Assembly (NCBI GenBank): GCA_937859855.1
Contig: CALMAR010000481.1
Coordinates: 5,049-12,342 of the forward strand
Source of the DNA: an uncultured Kineosporia sp.
Lineage (GTDB): Bacteria; Actinomycetota; Actinomycetes; Actinomycetales; Kineosporiaceae
Length of the DNA stretch: 7,294 nucleotides
Direction: 5' to 3'
Of the stretch, positions 1 to 6,690 are shown piece after piece. Made by a program: the position numbers and the translations under genes. Below the pieces are notes generated by a model, which made no database searches, had not been told where the DNA came from, and saw only the letters and a list, made by a program, of their open reading frames with translations. Every line of letters starts with the position of its first letter. Within the stretch, counting starts at the first letter, position 1.

Positions 1-874
1 GGTCCACGTCGGCCTCGGCCCGCACCCCGGTCAGGGTGATGGGGGAGACGTAGCGCAGGATCTCCTCGATACAGGGGTCCCAGCCCGTCGGGTCGTCCAG
101 GAGCCGGGCCACGACTGCGGGACGGGGCACCAGCAGGTCCAGCCCGGCGCAGAGGAGGGTAGTCGTGGTGGCGTGGCCGGCCAGGATGAAGAAGAGACAG
201 TTGGCGATCAGGTCCTGTCGCTGTTCGGGGTCGTCGTTCCCGGCGGCCAGGGTCGAGGCGAGGTCGTCGTGGGGGTCGTCGGCGCGCTGCCGGAGCAGGT
301 CGTCGAAGTAGGTGAGCATGTCGGCTGCGGCTTCGTTGGCCGCTACGACCGGTGGTCGGGTCCGCTGCCCCGCGAAGCCGCGGCCCAGGGTGGCCATTGA
401 GCGCCTGAGCCAGTCCTGCCGCCCCGGCTCGACGCCGAGCACATTCGCGATCACGGCGAACGGCAGCGGCTCGGCGAACTCGGCCGCCAGGTCACCACTG
501 TTCCGCTGCTCCAACCCGGTCAGCAGTTCGTCGCAGCGGGCGCTGATCACCGGCTCGTACGAGGTGACCCGGCGCGCGCTGAACAGTCCCGAGAAGCGCC
601 GACGCACCGCCGCATGACGCTCGGGTGGCAGCCGGGGCATGAACCGCGCAAGCAGTCGGATGATCAGATCGGCAGAGTCCGGCACCGTGGGCGCGGCAAG
701 CCGCCGGTCGTGCAGGGCCGCCTGCACGAACTCGTAGCCGACGCCGGGGATCGTCGCGTCCTTCAGCACCGCCTGGGGGTCGACCCGCCCCACCGGACCG
801 AACAGCCCGTCCATCACCTCTTGCTCGGCCTGGGCCGCCCTGTGCTCGATCGCCGCCGGTTCGTGATCCGTCAC
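1..874 (-). CDS. Cytochrome P450, N-terminal 291 residues (C-terminus off left edge); candidate peptide-crosslinking P450
   Basis: This is a soluble, actinobacterial-type cytochrome P450, a haem monooxygenase or oxidative coupling enzyme. Reading from the GTG at 874, the C-helix region near residues 78-103 (FMPRLPPERHAAVRRRF, then SGLFSARRV) matches the usual PPeHtrlRr..aFtprrv block. The I-helix is at about 225-245 with AGHATTTT at 232-239, and the K-helix ExxR is E271-I-L-R274. The Cys haem-ligand loop lies beyond the window. The I-helix normally reads A-G-x-D/E-T, but here the acidic position is Ala235, so the acid-alcohol pair is incomplete. There is no membrane anchor, and the N-terminus before the C-helix is short. 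The start overlaps the stop of the upstream 22-codon gene as GTGA (874-871); a GTG at 877 is in frame and equally usable. The tight coupling suggests the peptide is its substrate, by inference. An ordinary small-molecule P450 remains possible. Confidence 0.93.
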   Translation of the reverse strand, partial: MTDHEPAAIEHRAAQAEQEVMDGLFGPVGRVDPQAVLKDATIPGVGYEFVQAALHDRRLAAPTVPDSADLIIRLLARFMPRLPPERHAAVRRRFSGLFSARRVTSYEPVISARCDELLTGLEQRNSGDLAAEFAEPLPFAVIANVLGVEPGRQDWLRRSMATLGRGFAGQRTRPPVVAANEAAADMLTYFDDLLRQRADDPHDDLASTLAAGNDDPEQRQDLIANCLFFILAGHATTTTLLCAGLDLLVPRPAVVARLLDDPTGWDPCIEEILRYVSPITLTGVRAEADVD

Positions 875-939
875 CACGCCAGTGTCCACTCCTCCTGCAG
901 GGCACGCCGCAAGTCTCGGGTCGTGAACTGGTAGCGCAT
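871..939 (-). CDS. 22-residue peptide, putative P450-modified RiPP precursor
   Basis: This short reading frame starts at ATG 939 and stops with TGA at 873-871. A GGGAG Shine-Dalgarno site lies 7 bases before the ATG, which is why I accept so short a gene. Residues 1-17 are MRYQFTTRDLRRALQEE, a charged segment that could form an amphipathic helix and act as a leader. The last five residues are WTLAW, ending on Trp directly before the stop. Its stop overlaps the start of the P450 gene by four bases. Known P450-modified RiPPs (biarylitides, cittilins, tryptorubin-type peptides) have very short precursors with C-terminal aromatic residues beside a single P450; the assignment here is inference from that architecture. 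The frame stays open upstream, and an in-frame ATG at 1032 would give 53 residues, but I see no good ribosome binding site there. The alternative is a translational coupling leader with no product role. Confidence 0.66.
   Translation of the reverse strand: MRYQFTTRDLRRALQEEWTLAW
889..895 (-). promoter_or_regulatory. Ribosome binding site of the P450, inside the peptide gene
   Basis: GGAGGAG on the minus strand lies within the Gln-Glu-Glu codons just before the WTLAW codons of the peptide gene. It is 11 bases from GTG 877 and 14 from GTG 874. The spacing is long, so re-initiation after the overlapping stop probably contributes to P450 translation. Confidence 0.5.
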
Positions 940-946
940 CGATCCA

Positions 947-951
947 CTCCC
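947..951 (-). promoter_or_regulatory. Ribosome binding site of the 22-residue peptide gene
   Basis: GGGAG read on the minus strand, 7 bases before ATG 939. It is the main reason to choose ATG 939 over longer in-frame alternatives. Confidence 0.65.
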
Positions 952-1158
952 GCCGTCCGTTGCACAAGCGCCGCTCTCGCCGTCCTCGGCGGCCTCGGCG
1001 GCTCCGAACTGGCGAACCGGGCGCTGGAGCATGCCTGGCTGTCGGCGCCGCTGCTGGCGCAGCCGGCAGTCGCTGGCCGAGCCGTCGGCGACGACCGGGT
1101 GGTGGCCCGACCAAGCGGAACCCGCCGAGGAACTGGTCGCGGGCAGCGCCGGATGCAG

Positions 1159-1189
1159 ACGGGGGATGACATCAGCTATCGTCCCCCGT
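1159..1189. repeat. Strong inverted repeat (hairpin or operator) in the divergent spacer
   Basis: ACGGGGGA at 1159-1166 is a perfect inverted copy of TCCCCCGT at 1182-1189. The stem extends inward by a G-T pair and two further pairs to 11, leaving a 9-base loop. Only two further T residues follow the stem on the plus strand and no T tract follows on the minus strand, so it is a poor intrinsic terminator. Its place between two divergent genes also suits an operator. Confidence 0.6.
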
Positions 1190-1222
1190 TTCACCCACGG
1201 AGGAGCCCGGGGAAGCCTGAGC

Positions 1223-1250
1223 CCGGGAACCCGGGACCGGCCGTTCCCGG
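1223..1250. repeat. Inverted repeat in the probable 5' leader of the deacetylase gene
   Basis: CCGGGAAC at 1223-1230 and GTTCCCGG at 1243-1250 form a perfect 8-base inverted repeat around a 12-base GC-rich centre. It lies about 60 bases before the deacetylase ATG. It could be leader RNA structure or a protein-binding site; the local richness in CCCGGG makes chance a real possibility. Confidence 0.4.
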
Positions 1251-1309
1251 TTGGCCCTTCGTGGTGGGGCCGGCAGGGCCGATCGAACGGCTGAGGGAGT
1301 GGACGGCGG

Positions 1310-2137
1310 ATGAGTGGCCACCGGTTGACGCTGATGGCGGTGCACGCGCACCCGGACGACGAGGCCACCGGTACCGGAGGGGTGCTCGCCCGCTACGCCG
1401 CGGACGGCGTGCGCACGGTGCTGGTCACGTGCACGGACGGCCGGTGCGGCGACGGCCCGGGTGGGGTGAAGCCGGGCGAGCCCGGCCACGACCCGGATGC
1501 CGTGGTCGCGCTACGCCGGGCCGAGCTGGAGGCCAGTTGTGCGGTGCTGAAGGTCGAGAACCTGGAACTGCTGGGATACCAGGACTCCGGGATGATGGGC
1601 TGGTCGCAGAACGACGCACCTGGTGCCTTCTGGAGGACGCCGGTGCCCGAGGCGGCCGCCCGCCTGGCCGAGTTGATCGGCCGGTACCGGCCTGACGTGC
1701 TCGTCACCTACGACGAGAACGGCTTCTACGGACACCCCGATCACATCCAGGCCCATCGCATCACCATGGCCGCCGTCGAGGCGACCGGCACGGACGCCAA
1801 GGTCTACTGGACGACCTTCCCACGCTCGGCCATGGACCGGTTCATGCAGGTGATGGCGGAGCTCGGCGAGGAGCCGGATCGGGGGCAGGAGGGGGACGCC
1901 GAGTTCCCGGAGATCGGGCTTCCGGACGACGAGGTCACGACCTGGGTCGACGTGCGGGCCTTCAGCAACCAGAAGTTCGAGTCCCTCGCCGCCCACGCCA
2001 GTCAGGAGGAGAACATCGTCTTCCTGCGGATGGGGCGGGAACGGTTCGCGGACCTGATGGGCGTCGAGACCTTCGTCCGGGTCGACCCGAAGTCCACCGG
2101 CGAGCGTGAGGACGACCTGTTCGACACCCTCCGGTAG
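1310..2137 (+). CDS. PIG-L/LmbE-family zinc-dependent deacetylase (MshB/Mca-like)
   Basis: This 275-residue protein belongs to the LmbE/PIG-L family of metal-dependent amidases, which includes the mycothiol enzymes MshB (GlcNAc-inositol deacetylase) and Mca (mycothiol S-conjugate amidase). The signature AHPDDE is at residues 13-18, giving metal ligands His14 and Asp17 and the catalytic base Asp16. The second signature YDENGFYGHPDHIQAH is at about 134-149, with His145 as the third ligand and His142 as a likely catalytic residue. A typical ELLGYQDSGM segment is at about 86-95, and LAAHASQ near the C-terminus matches the family. It has no signal peptide, so it is cytoplasmic. A GAGGGAG site ends 10 bases before ATG 1310. 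The exact substrate cannot be told from sequence; a mycothiol-related or other N-acetyl-sugar substrate is likely. The kinase-like gene follows after 28 bases, so the two are probably co-transcribed. Confidence 0.93.
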   Translation: MSGHRLTLMAVHAHPDDEATGTGGVLARYAADGVRTVLVTCTDGRCGDGPGGVKPGEPGHDPDAVVALRRAELEASCAVLKVENLELLGYQDSGMMGWSQNDAPGAFWRTPVPEAAARLAELIGRYRPDVLVTYDENGFYGHPDHIQAHRITMAAVEATGTDAKVYWTTFPRSAMDRFMQVMAELGEEPDRGQEGDAEFPEIGLPDDEVTTWVDVRAFSNQKFESLAAHASQEENIVFLRMGRERFADLMGVETFVRVDPKSTGEREDDLFDTLR

Positions 2138-2155
2138 CCGGGTGGTGGCCGGCCC

Positions 2156-2163
2156 GGAGGTGA
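2156..2163 (+). promoter_or_regulatory. Ribosome binding site of the P-loop kinase-like gene
   Basis: GGAGGTGA is a full match to the anti-Shine-Dalgarno sequence. The GGAGG core ends 5 bases before ATG 2166 and only 2 before ATG 2163, which favours 2166 and rules out starts further upstream inside the deacetylase gene. Confidence 0.75.
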
Positions 2164-2165
2164 TG

Positions 2166-2702
2166 ATGAGTCGACCCACGCTGTTCCTGACGGTGGGACT
2201 TCCGGGCACCGGGAAGACAACCGCCGCGCGGCTCATCGAGGTCGAGCACAAGGCCCTTCGGCTCACGAAGGACGAATGGGTCAAAGCCCTCTATGGGCCT
2301 GACAATCCAGCATCGGCCCAGGACGTGATCGAAGGGCGGCTCATCCAGATCGGGCTGCGTGGGCTGGAACTCGGCAACAACGTCGTGATCGACTACGGCC
2401 TCTGGAGCCGAGACGAGCGTTCCGCCCTGCGGCAGGCGGCGGCCGACCTCGGCGCGACGGCGGAGATTCGCTACTTCGAACTCACCCCCGCCGAACAGCG
2501 AAGGCGTCTCGATCGGCGCCAGGCCGAAGCACCGCACACGACGTGGCCGATGTCGGAGCCGGAACTTCTCGGGTGGGCTGCCACCATCGACATCCCCACG
2601 CCGGGCGAAGTCGACGGCAGCGAACCCATCGACGACCCACCGGCCGGGTACGCGACCTGGGGCCAGTGGCGCCGGCGACGCTGGCCGCTGTCGGTCTCCT
2701 GA
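2166..2702 (+). CDS. Small P-loop NTPase, AAA_33/zeta-like kinase family
   Basis: This 178-residue soluble protein has a Walker A motif GLPGTGKTT at residues 11-19 right after the first beta strand. It is followed by RLTKDEW (32-38), with Asp36 where this kinase group often has an acidic substrate-binding residue. The segment NNVVIDYGLWSRDERSALRQ (71-90) and the following FELTPAEQRRRLDRRQ (104-119) are typical of AAA_33-type small-molecule or nucleic-acid kinases, which relate to polynucleotide kinase and chloramphenicol phosphotransferase folds. The arginine-rich lid is about 112-118. The protein transfers a phosphate from ATP or GTP to an unknown acceptor, by family knowledge. It sits 28 bases after the deacetylase with a very strong ribosome binding site, so the two are likely one operon. 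No partner antitoxin gene is seen, so I do not call it a toxin. Confidence 0.87.
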   Translation: MSRPTLFLTVGLPGTGKTTAARLIEVEHKALRLTKDEWVKALYGPDNPASAQDVIEGRLIQIGLRGLELGNNVVIDYGLWSRDERSALRQAAADLGATAEIRYFELTPAEQRRRLDRRQAEAPHTTWPMSEPELLGWAATIDIPTPGEVDGSEPIDDPPAGYATWGQWRRRRWPLSVS

Positions 2703-2800: not shown

Positions 2801-4201
2801 ATGCTCCTACCGGTCCGCGTCGCTGCCCTGCTGGCGGTCGTGCTGCCCGTCGCTCTGGCCGGGTGCACCGGTCCGTCGCCGGCCGACCCGCAGACCACGC
2901 CGCCCACGTCTCGTACCGCTTCCGCGAATCCCGGACCCGGCGTGACCGGTGCGTCCGGTGCAGTGGACTGGCCGATGTACCACGGCACTGCGGATCACGC
3001 CGGCCGGTCGACGACGATGCCGGCGGTGGTGGGCGGGCCGAAGCTGGCCGAGTCGCTGAGGCTGGACGGGGCGGTCTACGCCTCGCCGATCGTGGTCGAC
3101 GGGCTGAGCGTGGTGGCTACCGAGAACGACACCGTGTACGCGTTCGACCGGGCGTACCACCAGGTCTGGTCACGGCACCTGGGCGAACCGTCGCCGGATG
3201 AGCAGCGGCAGTGCGGTGACATCGACCCGTTGGGGATCACCGGCACGCCCATCTACGACAACGGCACGGTCTACCTCGTCGCCGAGATGGGCGGCGCGGT
3301 CCGCCACCAGCTCTTCGCGCTCGACCTCGCCACCGGCGCCACCCGGTGGACCCGGGGCGTCGACCTGCCCGGCGTGAGCGCACGAGACATGCAGCAGCGG
3401 GGTGCGCTCGCCATCACCGGCGGCCGGGTCTGGGTGCCCTACGGCGCGCAGGCCGGCGACTGCGGCGAGTACAAGGGGCGCGTCGTCGGTGTTCCGCTGT
3501 CCGGGACCGGCAGCCTTGTTGCGTACACCCCGCCGACGAAACGCGGGGGAGGGATGTGGAACCCGGCCGGGCCGACCGTGGATCGCAGCGGTGACCTGTA
3601 CGTGGTGTCCGCGAACGGGGCCGCCTTCCCAGGGGCCGCGTACGACCGCACGAACTCGGTGCTGAGGTTGGACGGGAACGCGAAGTTGCTCGACTCGTTC
3701 GCACCGAGCGACTGGGCGCAGAACAACCAGGCCGACGTCGGTCTGGGCTCGCAGGGCGTGGCCCTGGTCGGCACTCGATGGGCGGTGCTCGGCGGCAAGT
3801 CCGGCCCGGTCTACGTGCTGGACCGCGCCCACCTCGGCGGCATCGCCGGCCAGGTTTCCGTGCAGAATGTCTGCCGCTCGTTCGGCGGCGCCGCGGTGGA
3901 CGGCGACACCGTGTACCTGCCGTGCGTGGACGGCGTCCGCGCGGTGCGGGTGGACTCTGCCGGCCGGCTGCACGTGCGGTGGCATGCGGCGGCTTCAACG
4001 AACGGGTCGCCGGTGGTCGGGGGTGGCCGCGTCTGGGCGCTCGACCCGGCCGCCGGCGTGCTGCACGCGCTCGACCCGGCCACCGGGCGCAGCACCGGTG
4101 AGGTGCGGGTCGGCGTGGCCAACCGGTTCGCCACCCCGGCCCTGTACGGCTCGACCGTGATCGTGCCGACGCTGTCGGGCATCGCCGTCGTCGACAGCTG
4201 A
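2801..4201 (+). CDS. Secreted lipoprotein with PQQ-type beta-propeller
   Basis: This 466-residue protein begins with a lipoprotein signal peptide: a hydrophobic stretch at 8-20 followed by the lipobox L19-A20-G21-C22, so Cys22 would be lipidated and the protein anchored outside the membrane. A Pro/Thr/Ser-rich linker spans about 23-54. From VDWPMYHG (55-62) on, WD-like PQQ propeller blades follow, for example VYASPIVVDG (92-101), TGTPIYDNGTVYLV (147-160), LFALDLATGATRWTR (171-185), GGAAVDGDTVYLP (362-374) and GSPVVGGGRVWALD (402-415). Four cysteines after the lipobox (138, 221, 358, 375) could form two disulfides outside the cell. I see no enzyme active site, so a scaffolding, binding or PQQ-dehydrogenase-like role is open. 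The ATG at 2801 gives the signal peptide directly, although the ribosome binding site is weak; the upstream open frame overlapping the kinase gene is not used. The 98-base gap after the kinase gene leaves operon membership uncertain. Confidence 0.9.
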   Translation: MLLPVRVAALLAVVLPVALAGCTGPSPADPQTTPPTSRTASANPGPGVTGASGAVDWPMYHGTADHAGRSTTMPAVVGGPKLAESLRLDGAVYASPIVVDGLSVVATENDTVYAFDRAYHQVWSRHLGEPSPDEQRQCGDIDPLGITGTPIYDNGTVYLVAEMGGAVRHQLFALDLATGATRWTRGVDLPGVSARDMQQRGALAITGGRVWVPYGAQAGDCGEYKGRVVGVPLSGTGSLVAYTPPTKRGGGMWNPAGPTVDRSGDLYVVSANGAAFPGAAYDRTNSVLRLDGNAKLLDSFAPSDWAQNNQADVGLGSQGVALVGTRWAVLGGKSGPVYVLDRAHLGGIAGQVSVQNVCRSFGGAAVDGDTVYLPCVDGVRAVRVDSAGRLHVRWHAAASTNGSPVVGGGRVWALDPAAGVLHALDPATGRSTGEVRVGVANRFATPALYGSTVIVPTLSGIAVVDS

Positions 4202-4350
4202 ACGCTCTCCTCGGTATGAGGATGCCGTTCGTCGTGCAGGTCGTGGACACGCGACGGCCGACGTACCTGGCACCGGAAGAAACAGCCGCCCGCGACCGGA
4301 GCAGGCCGGGGCGTGCTTCAGGTCCCCTCTCGGAGAAGGCAGGAGTGCTG
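4202..4350. other. Convergent intergenic gap
   Basis: The lipoprotein gene and the GGDEF-EAL gene end towards each other here. A two-way terminator would be expected, but I see only a 5-base hairpin at 4208-4222 (TCCTC/GAGGA) without a T tract, which is too weak to call. Confidence 0.5.
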
Positions 4351-6690
4351 TCAGGACTGTCTCTGGGCGGGCAGCAGGTGCTGCGTCGTCTGGTGGGTGC
4401 TGAGCCAGTGGTCGAGTTCGGCGGGCGGAACGGGTCTTGACAGGTAGTAACCCTGCGCCTGGTCGCAGCCGTGGCGGGCCAGTTCGTTCAGGGCGACCTG
4501 GGTTTCGACGCCCTCGGCGACCATGCGCAGTCCCAGGCTGTGCGCCAGGCCGATGGTGGAGTGGACCAGTGCTGCAGCTCGGGCGTCGTCGGCCATCGGG
4601 AAGATGAACGAGCGGTCGAGTTTCAGCTCGTCGATGGGCAGTTCGCGCAGGTAGGCCAGGGAGCTGTATCCGGTGCCGAAGTCGTCGATGGAGATCTGGA
4701 CGCCGTAGGCACGCAGCCGGGTGAGGATGTCGCGGGCGCGTACTCGGTCGTCCATCAGGATTTCCTCGGTGATCTCCAACTGCAGGAGAGCGGCGTCCAG
4801 GTTGCGGACGCGAAGCAGACCGGCGACGTATTCAGGCAGCTCGGTATCGAGCAGGGAGCTGGCGGACAGGTTGACCGCGACGGTCAACGGGCGGCCTCCT
4901 CTCTGCCAGGACGCGGCCTGATCAAGGGCCTGCTGGAGGACGGTCTGGGTCAGAGCAGGCATCATCCCGCTCTCCTCCACCAGGTCCAGGAAGCTGTCTG
5001 GGTAGAGCAGTCCTCGGGTGGGATGGTCCCACCGCACGAGTGCTTCCACCCCGTGCACTTCGCCGCTGCGGAGGTCGACCTTCGGCTGGTAGTGAAGGGT
5101 CAGCTGATCATGGCTTAGCGCGGCACGTAGCTGTTGCAGGGTCCGCAGTCGCCCTTCACCGTCGGCGTCGTCACTGCCGATGTAGACGCAGGGCCCGGTG
5201 CCTGCCCTCTTGGAGCGGTACATGGACACGTCTGCCCGACGCAGCAGGAGGCTGATGTCCTGACCATGTTCGGGATGCAGGGACAGCCCGATGCTGGCAT
5301 CGACCCCCACCCCGATGCCCTCCAGGTTGAACGGTTCGCTGAGAGTGGCACGCATCTTGACGGCCACGGCCAGGGCTTCGGCCTGGTCGACGTCGCTGAG
5401 CAGGACAGCGAACTCGTCACCACCGAGGCGGGCCAGCAGATCACCGTCGCGCAGCACGTGAGCCAGTCGGACGCTGACCTGGGTCAGCAGTCGATCACCG
5501 ACGTGGTGGCCCAGGCTGTCGTTGACCTCCTTGAACCGGTCGAGGTCGAGCAGCAGCAGCGCGCCGGGCCTGTGCCCGCCCTCCGCCGCCAGCCGGGAAG
5601 TCGCATGGGAGTAGAACGCGCGCCGGTTGGGCAGTCCGGTCAGATCGTCGGTGGTGGCCTGCCGCTGTAGCTCCGCCACGCGCAGCAGCTGCCGGAACGC
5701 CAGATGGGTTCGACCCGCCGTGGCCGCCAGCGTCAGCGTCGCCAGGCCGATGGGCAGGACGGAGACAGGCGTTCGGGTGGCGCTGACCAGCACGCTCAGG
5801 CCGGCCAAGGAGGCCAACGCGGGGACGGCCAATGGCACGGGTCGCTCGACGCCTGCCGCCTCGGCGGGTGCGGGGCTGGTGGCCCATACGCTGATCAACG
5901 TCGCGCCGACCGCCCACACGCCGTCCAGAGGGCTGCCCGAGACGTAACTGTCGTGCGCGATGCGCAGTGCGTAGATGATGTCCCCGCTGGCGAAGACTGC
6001 CGTACCGACCAACAGCGGAAGCCAGTGACGTCGTACCCGCAGGCCCTGGACTGCCCCGATCCCGACCACTGTGGCGACCAGTAGAAGGTCGAACAGCGGG
6101 TAGGCGACCAACAGGGTTACCTGCAACGGGCTCCCGGATGCGTGCGCCAGCACCGGGCCCAGCAACACGGCCAGTACAGTCGTGGCGCCCAGCGCGCCCA
6201 ACGCGCTGTCGAACCAGACCCCCCAGGATTGACTGTGCAGCTCCCGTCGCGCGGCCAGGACGACTGCGGTCATGATCGCGATGTAGAAGCAAACGGTCCC
6301 GAGATCAGTGAAGGATGGGAATGGGAGAACGGTGCCGCCGATCGTTGCGATCACGTAGTAGATCGAGCCCAGCGCCCAGGCGCTCATTCCTACGGCTGCG
6401 GCGATGACCTCGGCCCTGCGCGGACCGGCTCTGCGCACCGCCCAGCAGCACGCCACGGCCGGCGTGACCTGGGTCAGCAGGCCCACTCCGTAGACGAGCG
6501 ACGGGTGGAAGTCCCTGCCGGGAACCGCCAGGCCGCCGAGGAAACCAACGACCCACACCCACCTGACCAGCCCTACGCGCCGCCAGGCTCCGCGCGCCGA
6601 TGGCGTGGCCCCCCTTCTGGAGTCGCCACTGACCACCGCGGTCGCATCACCCGCCACCATGCGTCCTCTCGACAAGCGTTCTACCGACAT
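4351..6690 (-). CDS. Membrane-bound GGDEF-EAL protein (c-di-GMP synthase/phosphodiesterase)
   Basis: This 779-residue protein makes and/or degrades the second messenger c-di-GMP at the membrane. Residues 1-36 are cytoplasmic and basic. About 37-330 hold roughly nine or ten hydrophobic segments that form an unnamed polytopic sensor region, and a short helix at 331-345 leads into the GGDEF domain. That domain begins with TTDDLTGLPNRRAF (346-359), has DLDRFKEVND at 382-391, the product-inhibition I-site R414-x-x-D417, and an intact GGDEF at 423-427. The EAL domain begins near 515, with EALVRW at 549-554, Asn607, Glu639, DDFGTG at 669-674, Lys690 and Glu726, so all usual catalytic and metal residues are present. 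Both activities are therefore possible. ATG 6690 has no clear ribosome binding site; ATG 6660 (Met11) has AGAGGA just before it and may be the true start. It is a single gene with no partner on its strand. Confidence 0.95.
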   Translation of the reverse strand: MSVERLSRGRMVAGDATAVVSGDSRRGATPSARGAWRRVGLVRWVWVVGFLGGLAVPGRDFHPSLVYGVGLLTQVTPAVACCWAVRRAGPRRAEVIAAAVGMSAWALGSIYYVIATIGGTVLPFPSFTDLGTVCFYIAIMTAVVLAARRELHSQSWGVWFDSALGALGATTVLAVLLGPVLAHASGSPLQVTLLVAYPLFDLLLVATVVGIGAVQGLRVRRHWLPLLVGTAVFASGDIIYALRIAHDSYVSGSPLDGVWAVGATLISVWATSPAPAEAAGVERPVPLAVPALASLAGLSVLVSATRTPVSVLPIGLATLTLAATAGRTHLAFRQLLRVAELQRQATTDDLTGLPNRRAFYSHATSRLAAEGGHRPGALLLLDLDRFKEVNDSLGHHVGDRLLTQVSVRLAHVLRDGDLLARLGGDEFAVLLSDVDQAEALAVAVKMRATLSEPFNLEGIGVGVDASIGLSLHPEHGQDISLLLRRADVSMYRSKRAGTGPCVYIGSDDADGEGRLRTLQQLRAALSHDQLTLHYQPKVDLRSGEVHGVEALVRWDHPTRGLLYPDSFLDLVEESGMMPALTQTVLQQALDQAASWQRGGRPLTVAVNLSASSLLDTELPEYVAGLLRVRNLDAALLQLEITEEILMDDRVRARDILTRLRAYGVQISIDDFGTGYSSLAYLRELPIDELKLDRSFIFPMADDARAAALVHSTIGLAHSLGLRMVAEGVETQVALNELARHGCDQAQGYYLSRPVPPAELDHWLSTHQTTQHLLPAQRQS

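What the first reader, a model, noticed from the sequence alone, without database searches (positions are those of the whole stretch)
1..939. Candidate minimal P450-modified RiPP locus: 22-residue Trp-ended peptide overlapping a P450
Seen in sequence: a 22-codon frame with a GGGAG site 7 bases before its ATG, ending WTLAW-stop, and sharing GTGA with the start of a P450. Established knowledge: biarylitide, cittilin and tryptorubin/atropopeptide loci pair a very short precursor with one P450 that crosslinks aromatic side chains. Inference: the peptide is the P450 substrate, and Trp18 and Trp22 (W-x-x-x-W) are the likely crosslink sites, with residues 1-17 as leader. Genes this short are usually missed by annotation, so this family may be undescribed.
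Basis: partly seen in the sequence, partly recalled or inferred. Interest (0 to 1): 0.85.

Follow-up and report, generated by a model that had tools for sequence, protein, structure and literature searches.

The report
Possible Trp-ended peptide beside a P450
A 22-residue peptide gene that ends in tryptophan sits just before, and overlaps, a rare bacterial P450 gene; it looks translated and could be the enzyme's substrate, but none of the relatives that could be examined carries the same peptide.

Summary
On the minus strand, 939..871 encodes MRYQFTTRDLRRALQEEWTLAW, with GGGAG 7 bases before the ATG and a GTGA overlap with a P450 cut off by the window edge. Composition supports translation: it is the only one of six frames in 939..874 with a positive coding score, and the signal passes to the P450 frame near 874. 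An ATG frame with a ribosome-binding motif ending at that junction occurs in 1.5% of shuffles (8.2% if GTG and TTG starts count).

The interpretation (P450-modified RiPP) is possible but unproven. The P450 belongs to a rare family (80 proteins here); 73 of 75 readable members lack the usual I-helix acid. The C-terminal EWTLAW fits the atropopeptide core pattern xWxxxx, but there is no KSLK-type leader motif.

Against it: 3 of 3 relatives with DNA (40-51% identity) have no comparable short frame. In 9 of 9 homologues whose upstream codons could be inferred far enough, Trp at both equivalent positions is impossible. The closest relatives (64-77%) could not be read as DNA. The peptide has no credible hits. 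It remains a candidate new variant, confined at most to a narrow clade.

The parts
871..939 (-). 22-codon frame MRYQFTTRDLRRALQEEWTLAW*, candidate precursor peptide gene
947..951 (-). GGGAG, ribosome-binding-like site, 7 bases before the ATG
874..891 (-). C-terminal EWTLAW (Trp18, Trp22), the candidate core if this is a RiPP precursor
   Evidence: sequence; pattern xWxxxx from PMC11450843 passages
895..918 (-). basic stretch RDLRRALQ of the putative leader; not one of the accepted KSLK-type motifs
   Evidence: sequence; motif list
2..874 (-). cytochrome P450, start GTG at 874, C-terminal part beyond the window edge; I-helix AGHATTTT without the usual acid
940..1032 (-). in-frame upstream extension from ATG 1032 (53-residue alternative form), no ribosome-binding motif; less likely

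Best explanation
The 22-codon frame is probably a real small gene, translated from its own ribosome-binding site and coupled to the P450 through the GTGA overlap (supported by composition; inferred). Its most likely role is as a short precursor whose C-terminal EWTLAW enters the P450 active site. There the P450 would join Trp18 to Trp22 (loss of 2 Da), with the basic residues 1-16 as recognition leader and a housekeeping protease releasing a small cyclic peptide (all inferred by analogy with atropopeptides). If so, it arose within a narrow clade of this P450 family, because the more distant members that could be tested do not carry the peptide.
For: Ribosome-binding-like site, ATG and overlap. 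Only positive coding frame of six, handing over to the P450 frame near 874; score per codon 0.28, within the 0.22-0.40 of five neighbouring genes. Shuffle rate 1.5% for the ATG frame with a ribosome-binding motif and 0.9% for two Trp in the last five codons. P450 start supported by homologues that begin VTEQEP, MTQQEG and MSDQET. C-terminal xWxxxx core and 10-40 residue length match the published atropopeptide pattern (PMC11450843: passages; section 8), and so does the two-gene layout. The P450 family has an unusual I-helix: acid missing in 73 of 75 readable members, against D or E in 27 of 34 readable generic P450 hits, which suggests non-standard oxidation chemistry.
Against: No comparable short frame at L001, L002 or L003: the nearest thing is a 20-residue ATG frame in L001 ending QTTW 265 bases before the P450 start, without a ribosome-binding motif and lying inside a longer frame. 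No frame with such a motif and two aromatics in its last six residues within about 1.5 kb (375 bases upstream for L003). Codon inference excludes Trp at both equivalent positions in 9 of 9 homologues where both can be seen. No credible relative of the peptide: one hit in 394 genomes, E 0.04, inside a 1025-residue frame; the 53-residue form shares three 5-residue words with no candidate protein; plasmids, phages and PDB give none. With GTG and TTG starts allowed, a frame with a ribosome-binding motif ends at the junction in 8.2% of shuffles. No KSLK-type motif. By eye, the frames around the P450 in L001-L003 share nothing with the window or each other (not run against family libraries).
Confidence: 0.33

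Rival explanations
1. The short frame is translated, but only as a leader that brings ribosomes to the GTG start of the P450 by termination-reinitiation; its product is not a substrate and is degraded. The P450 acts on some other small molecule.
For: GTGA overlap and a good ribosome-binding-like site ahead of a GTG start; coding-like composition; more distant members of the P450 family that could be tested lack the peptide, and their surroundings differ; the best sequence-related solved P450 of the homologue P0003 is 3ejb, a biotin-biosynthesis P450-like enzyme.
Against: Two Trp at the very C-terminus and the basic leader-like stretch are not needed for coupling. Coding-like codon usage suggests selection on the peptide rather than only on translation.
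Confidence: 0.3
2. The frame is a chance open frame in GC-rich intergenic DNA and is not translated to any purpose.
For: The frame is open for 145 codons upstream; the GTGA junction is forced by the GTG-Thr start; ATG frames of 10-40 codons end at this junction in 14% of shuffles without, and frames with any common start in 8.2% with, a ribosome-binding motif; no credible homologues of the peptide.
Against: With ATG and a ribosome-binding motif the rate is 1.5%; only one of six frames scores as coding, and the signal passes to the P450 frame near 874.
Confidence: 0.29
3. The peptide is a longer (about 53-residue) precursor starting at ATG 1032, with the same C-terminal core.
For: Frame open; mildly positive coding score in most steps back to about 1045.
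Against: No ribosome-binding motif before 1032; Gly/Ser/Ala-rich composition; the 22-codon start has the better site.
Confidence: 0.08

Closest known systems
Atropopeptides / bitryptides (tryptorubin, scabrirubin; P450s such as ScaB)
   Same: Two-gene layout, precursor of 10-40 residues, core at the very C-terminus with Trp at position 2 of the last six (EWTLAW); Trp-Trp crosslinks known for WxxW cores (PMC11450843 passages and section 8; PMC12352619 passages)
   Different: No KSLK-type leader motif at residues 17-20; Trp spacing is W-x-x-x-W, not W-x-x-W; no two consecutive aromatics; the P450 was not shown to be of the class-defining group
Biarylitides (P450Blt, RufO; precursors MRYxH)
   Same: One short gene next to one P450; peptide begins MRYQF with aromatics at positions 3 and 5
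   Different: 22 residues rather than 5-8; no stop after residue 5; P450Blt has E238 and Ser239 in the I-helix (PMC10929621 passages), whereas this family mostly has Ala or Gln followed by Thr at what looks like the same place (not aligned)
ApyO (aminopyruvatide P450, NCBIfam NF050147)
   Same: RiPP P450, weak general P450 similarity
   Different: 61.5 bits for P0003 against a cut-off of 525
BioI-like P450s (PDB 3ejb; the name BioI is recalled)
   Same: Best sequence match of the homologue P0003 among solved structures; JGI names many members pimeloyl-[acyl-carrier protein] synthase
   Different: No biotin gene among the six window proteins scanned; I-helix acid missing in this family

Membership tests
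Atropopeptides | Precursor of 10-40 residues with the core at the C-terminus next to the P450 gene | tested here: met
   22 residues, overlapping the P450 start
Atropopeptides | Trp at position 2 of the six-residue core (xWxxxx) | tested here: met
   EWTLAW; definition from PMC11450843 passages
Atropopeptides | KSLK or listed variant (RSLK, ESLK, KSRK, KPLK, PSLK) in the leader | tested here: not met
   Peptide has RDLR (8-11) and RALQ (12-15) only (list)
Atropopeptides | Class-defining P450 | not testable with these tools
   I had no sequence of a reference atropopeptide P450 to compare with
Biarylitides | Precursor of 5-8 residues with aromatics at positions 3 and 5 | tested here: not met
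   Y3 and F5 are present but the frame has 22 residues (criterion in PMC13417212 section 8)
Biarylitides | P450 with Glu-Ser (E238, Ser239 of P450Blt) in the I-helix | tested here: inconclusive
   Window AGHATT; 73 of 75 readable members have no acid there; equivalence of position inferred from PMC10929621 passages, not aligned; that this defines the family is my reading
Aminopyruvatide P450 ApyO (NF050147) | Score above NCBIfam cut-off 525 bits | tested here: not met
   61.5 bits for P0003, a 77%-identical full-length proxy; not among the window piece's matches at E up to 0.001
P450-crosslinked RiPPs in general | Precursor conserved with its P450 across relatives | tested here: not met
   Absent in 3 of 3 DNA loci at 40-51% identity; Trp pair impossible in 9 of 9 inferable homologues at 63% or less; closer relatives not testable. 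Hence not filed as a member, only as something that may work like one
P450-crosslinked RiPPs in general | Peptide crosslinked by the P450 (loss of 2 Da per link) | not testable with these tools
   Needs expression and mass spectrometry
Cytochrome P450 (PF00067) | P450 motifs: I-helix Thr, ExxR, haem Cys | tested here: met
   Window: AGHATT and EEILR; haem Cys lies outside the window but is present in P0003 and other full-length homologues; the truncated window piece scores 21.5 bits, just under Pfam's 22.8

The most novel reading that the evidence does not exclude
A clade-restricted RiPP family in which a P450 lineage lacking the I-helix acid, not tied to peptides in the relatives examined, has acquired an overlapping 22-codon precursor. 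The enzyme would close a five-residue W-x-x-x-W ring (Trp18-Trp22) without a KSLK leader.
Probability: 0.25. Interest if true: 0.75.

Novelty: new variant of a known kind. Interest (0 to 1): 0.4.

Why it matters
If true, it would add a P450-peptide pair that fits neither the biarylitide nor the atropopeptide definition, with a new Trp-to-Trp ring size. It would also show a P450 lineage picking up a peptide substrate within one clade. The 80-protein P450 family with a missing I-helix acid is itself worth biochemical study.

Tried and rejected
Genome of the window: none held. P450 relatives in named genomes: the one genome-contig scan, which needs exact matches to two short peptide patterns, gave 3 relatives among 110 matching stretches; one viral-contig scan gave none. 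Plasmids hold only P450s under 60% identity; the ten rows listed lie at 29-36%. Whole genomes searched with the P450 alignment, matches at E up to 1e-110 or 1e-100 (the rest): 1 of 394, 0 of 149, 0 of 150, 0 of 5, 0 of 3, 0 of 5 (the same five), 0 of 3 (the same three), 2 of 186. The hits are the two genomes already known; only part of the first-look candidates was scored, and the tool warns that the empty answers (32, 33, 36-39) had no positive control. Placing the window by its GGDEF-EAL protein and PQQ-repeat protein did not lead to a genome with this P450. Family models for the peptide: none at E up to 10 in NCBIfam or Pfam, within HMMER's filters. Promoter and terminator scan of 840..1340: nothing.

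Considered and rejected: membership of biarylitides (length) and of ApyO (score). For one search I chose 13 homologues by eye from the N-termini of the 80 family proteins printed. P0018, P0020 and P0022 have extensions but were left out because their likely start codons give no TGA junction. 4 of the 13 (P0029, P0054, P0062, P0063) show only three upstream residues and cannot test position -5. P0048 and P0056 give TGG, not a stop, at the junction. The 9 homologues written with V at their first residue (P0004, P0014, P0023, P0024, P0029, P0054, P0061, P0063, P0072) all come from JGI; other sources may write GTG starts as M, so the start codon of P0003 is not known.

Full report
WHAT IS THERE. 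On the minus strand, bases 939..871 read MRYQFTTRDLRRALQEEWTLAW-stop. GGGAG lies at 951..947, 7 bases before the ATG. The stop overlaps the GTG start of a P450 at 874 by GTGA; the P450 runs off the window at base 2 after 291 residues, before the haem-binding Cys. The window piece scores 21.5 bits against Pfam PF00067 (cut-off 22.8), but the protein search leaves no doubt: 119 hits, the best 77% identical over the whole piece (P0003, 398 residues; only the 7994 candidates sharing most words were scored). The P450 start is supported by close homologues beginning VTEQEP (P0004), MTQQEG (P0005) and MSDQET (P0003) against VTDHEP here. Divergently transcribed upstream is a PIG-L family deacetylase, nearest to MshB and Mca but under both NCBIfam cut-offs (1310-2137). 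What follows the P450 is outside the window.

IS THE SHORT FRAME MORE THAN CHANCE? The GTGA overlap means little alone, since GTG followed by a Thr codon always gives GTGA, and TGG-TGA arises from GTG GTG AC. The frame is open for 145 codons upstream, so openness means little too. In 20,000 dinucleotide shuffles of the 435 intergenic bases, an ATG frame of 10-40 codons ending at the junction appears in 14%, with a ribosome-binding motif in 1.5%, and with GTG and TTG starts also allowed plus the motif in 8.2%; two Trp in the last five codons in 0.9% (the Trp criterion was set after seeing the sequence). Codon usage is stronger evidence. Scored against five neighbouring genes, the peptide frame over 939..874 gives +6.4 and the other five frames are all negative; the signal moves to the P450 frame near 874. 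Per codon it scores 0.28, within the 0.22-0.40 of the five genes, and 2.5% of 870 off-frame stretches reach it. The same frame scores mildly positive in most steps back to about 1045, so a 53-residue form from ATG 1032 is not excluded, but it has no ribosome-binding motif. I read this as a probably translated small gene.

THE P450. I treated 80 proteins (the window piece P0002 and hits P0003-P0081, cut where scores fall from 135 to 91 bits) as the family; some are fragments. Of the 40 remaining hits, 37 match as generic P450s at 24-37% identity, one is a short piece (P0104), and two (P0087, P0088) carry a piece of this P450 at 77% over 21% of the query. The acid of the I-helix acid-alcohol pair is replaced (A 33, Q 32, S 2, L 2, V 2, T 1, M 1; E 2) in 73 of 75 readable members; 5 were unreadable. 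Among 38 other hits (P0087 and P0088 left out), 34 readable, 27 have D or E. The I-helix Thr and haem Cys are kept in most, and ExxR (as E[EDM]xLR) in 74 of 80. The nearest solved relative by sequence, with P0003 as query, is 3ejb, a biotin-biosynthesis P450-like enzyme. The family is rare in held genomes: 3 loci in the genome-contig scan (Phycicoccus 51%, Terracoccus 49%, an actinomycetote MAG 40%) and no new genome in the whole-genome searches listed under Tried and rejected (for example 1 of 394 in the class, and 2 of 186 in the family of G001).

DO RELATIVES HAVE THE PEPTIDE? At L001, L002 and L003 no frame like it ends at the P450 start. The one Trp-ended frame listed there is a 20-residue ATG frame in L001, 265 bases upstream, ending QTTW, with no ribosome-binding motif; it lies inside a longer frame (4028-4738) that itself overlaps the P450 start. 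No frame of 5-60 codons with a ribosome-binding motif and two aromatics in its last six residues lies within about 1.5 kb on either strand (for L003 only 375 bases upstream are held), and the peptide aligns to these stretches no better than shuffled peptides do (33, 19 and 41 of 60 shuffles reach the score). For homologues known only as proteins, some records extend upstream of the likely start, so the possible codons of the overlapping +1 frame can be listed. I did this for 13 of the 80. Positions -1 and -5 are both visible in 9. Trp at -5 is possible in 0 of 9, Trp at -1 in 1 of 9 (P0025), and both in 0 of 9; of the 4 with only three upstream residues, 1 (P0029) allows Trp at -1. So the Trp pair at this place is not a family feature, though a precursor placed elsewhere is not tested by this. 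The closest relatives, P0003-P0009 (64-77%), have no usable extension and I could not get their DNA. The peptide itself has no credible relatives: one hit in 394 genomes at E 0.04, inside a 1025-residue frame; no candidate sharing three 5-residue words with the 53-residue form in the protein database (the 22-residue form was not searched there); none in plasmids, phages or PDB at E up to 10, or in NCBIfam or Pfam. A 22-residue query has little power in all of these.

HOW IT MOST LIKELY WORKS. Shown: sequence, frame, ribosome-like site, overlap, coding-like composition, P450 family. Inferred: translation, coupling, substrate role. If it is a substrate, the C-terminal EWTLAW is the natural core, as in atropopeptides. 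PMC11450843 (passages; section 8) defines those by a KSLK-type leader motif, Trp at position 2 of the core and a class-defining P450; PMC12352619 (passages; abstract) reports Trp-Trp C-N links in WxxW cores and a 28-residue precursor ScaA. Here Trp sits at position 2 of the last six residues, but the motif is missing (RDLR and RALQ only) and the spacing is W-x-x-x-W. The first five residues MRYQF resemble the biarylitide precursor MRYxH, for which the mining rule is 5-8 residues with aromatics at 3 and 5 (PMC13417212: outline, sections 5 and 8); 17 further residues exclude membership. P450Blt has E238 and Ser239 in its I-helix (PMC10929621 passages), unlike this family, although I did not align them. 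For RufO, passages of PMC12186263 report an active site distinct from canonical P450s and a missing I-helix kink, so an odd I-helix does not speak against a peptide substrate. [quoted passage not shown]

VERDICT. A real and probably translated overlapping short gene; a RiPP substrate role is the leading single reading at about one in three, closely followed by a leader used only for translational coupling and by chance. The absence of the peptide in the relatives that could be tested (3 by DNA, 9 by codon inference, all at 63% identity or less) lowers the claim but does not exclude a precursor confined to the window's own clade. In the five paper searches I ran (open-licence PubMed Central only; listings, and the passages and sections named above) I saw no description of this pair. 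That is no proof that it is unpublished.

Noticed in passing
window 2-874 and family P0002-P0081: P450 family with the I-helix acid replaced by a non-acid residue, mostly Ala or Gln, in 73 of 75 readable members, and FSAG (not FGxG) before the haem Cys in at least 50 of 80; function unknown.
   Followed up: partly
L001 about 4712-4726; L002 about 5011-5025: Phycicoccus and Terracoccus share GTTCCACnATCGGAG just before the P450 start, perhaps a promoter or operator; several members of the MSTPP group show a TVHL-like reading at the same place.
   Followed up: no
P0037 and P0088 (longest contig 1,359,809 bases in both), P0087: What looks like a broken copy of the same P450: an N-terminal piece read in one frame behind a YceI domain (P0087, P0088) and a later piece (P0037).
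   Followed up: no
window 2121-2702: Small P-loop kinase-like protein (AAA_33, sub-threshold Zeta_toxin similarity) that may overlap the end of the PIG-L deacetylase gene, depending on its start.
   Followed up: no
window 4351-6690, minus strand: 779-residue GGDEF-EAL protein; its N-terminal 330 residues have 46 hits, the window's own included, the best other one 78% identical.
   Followed up: partly
window 939-925, minus strand: Peptide starts MRYQF, with aromatics at positions 3 and 5 as in biarylitide precursors, but the frame continues.
   Followed up: partly
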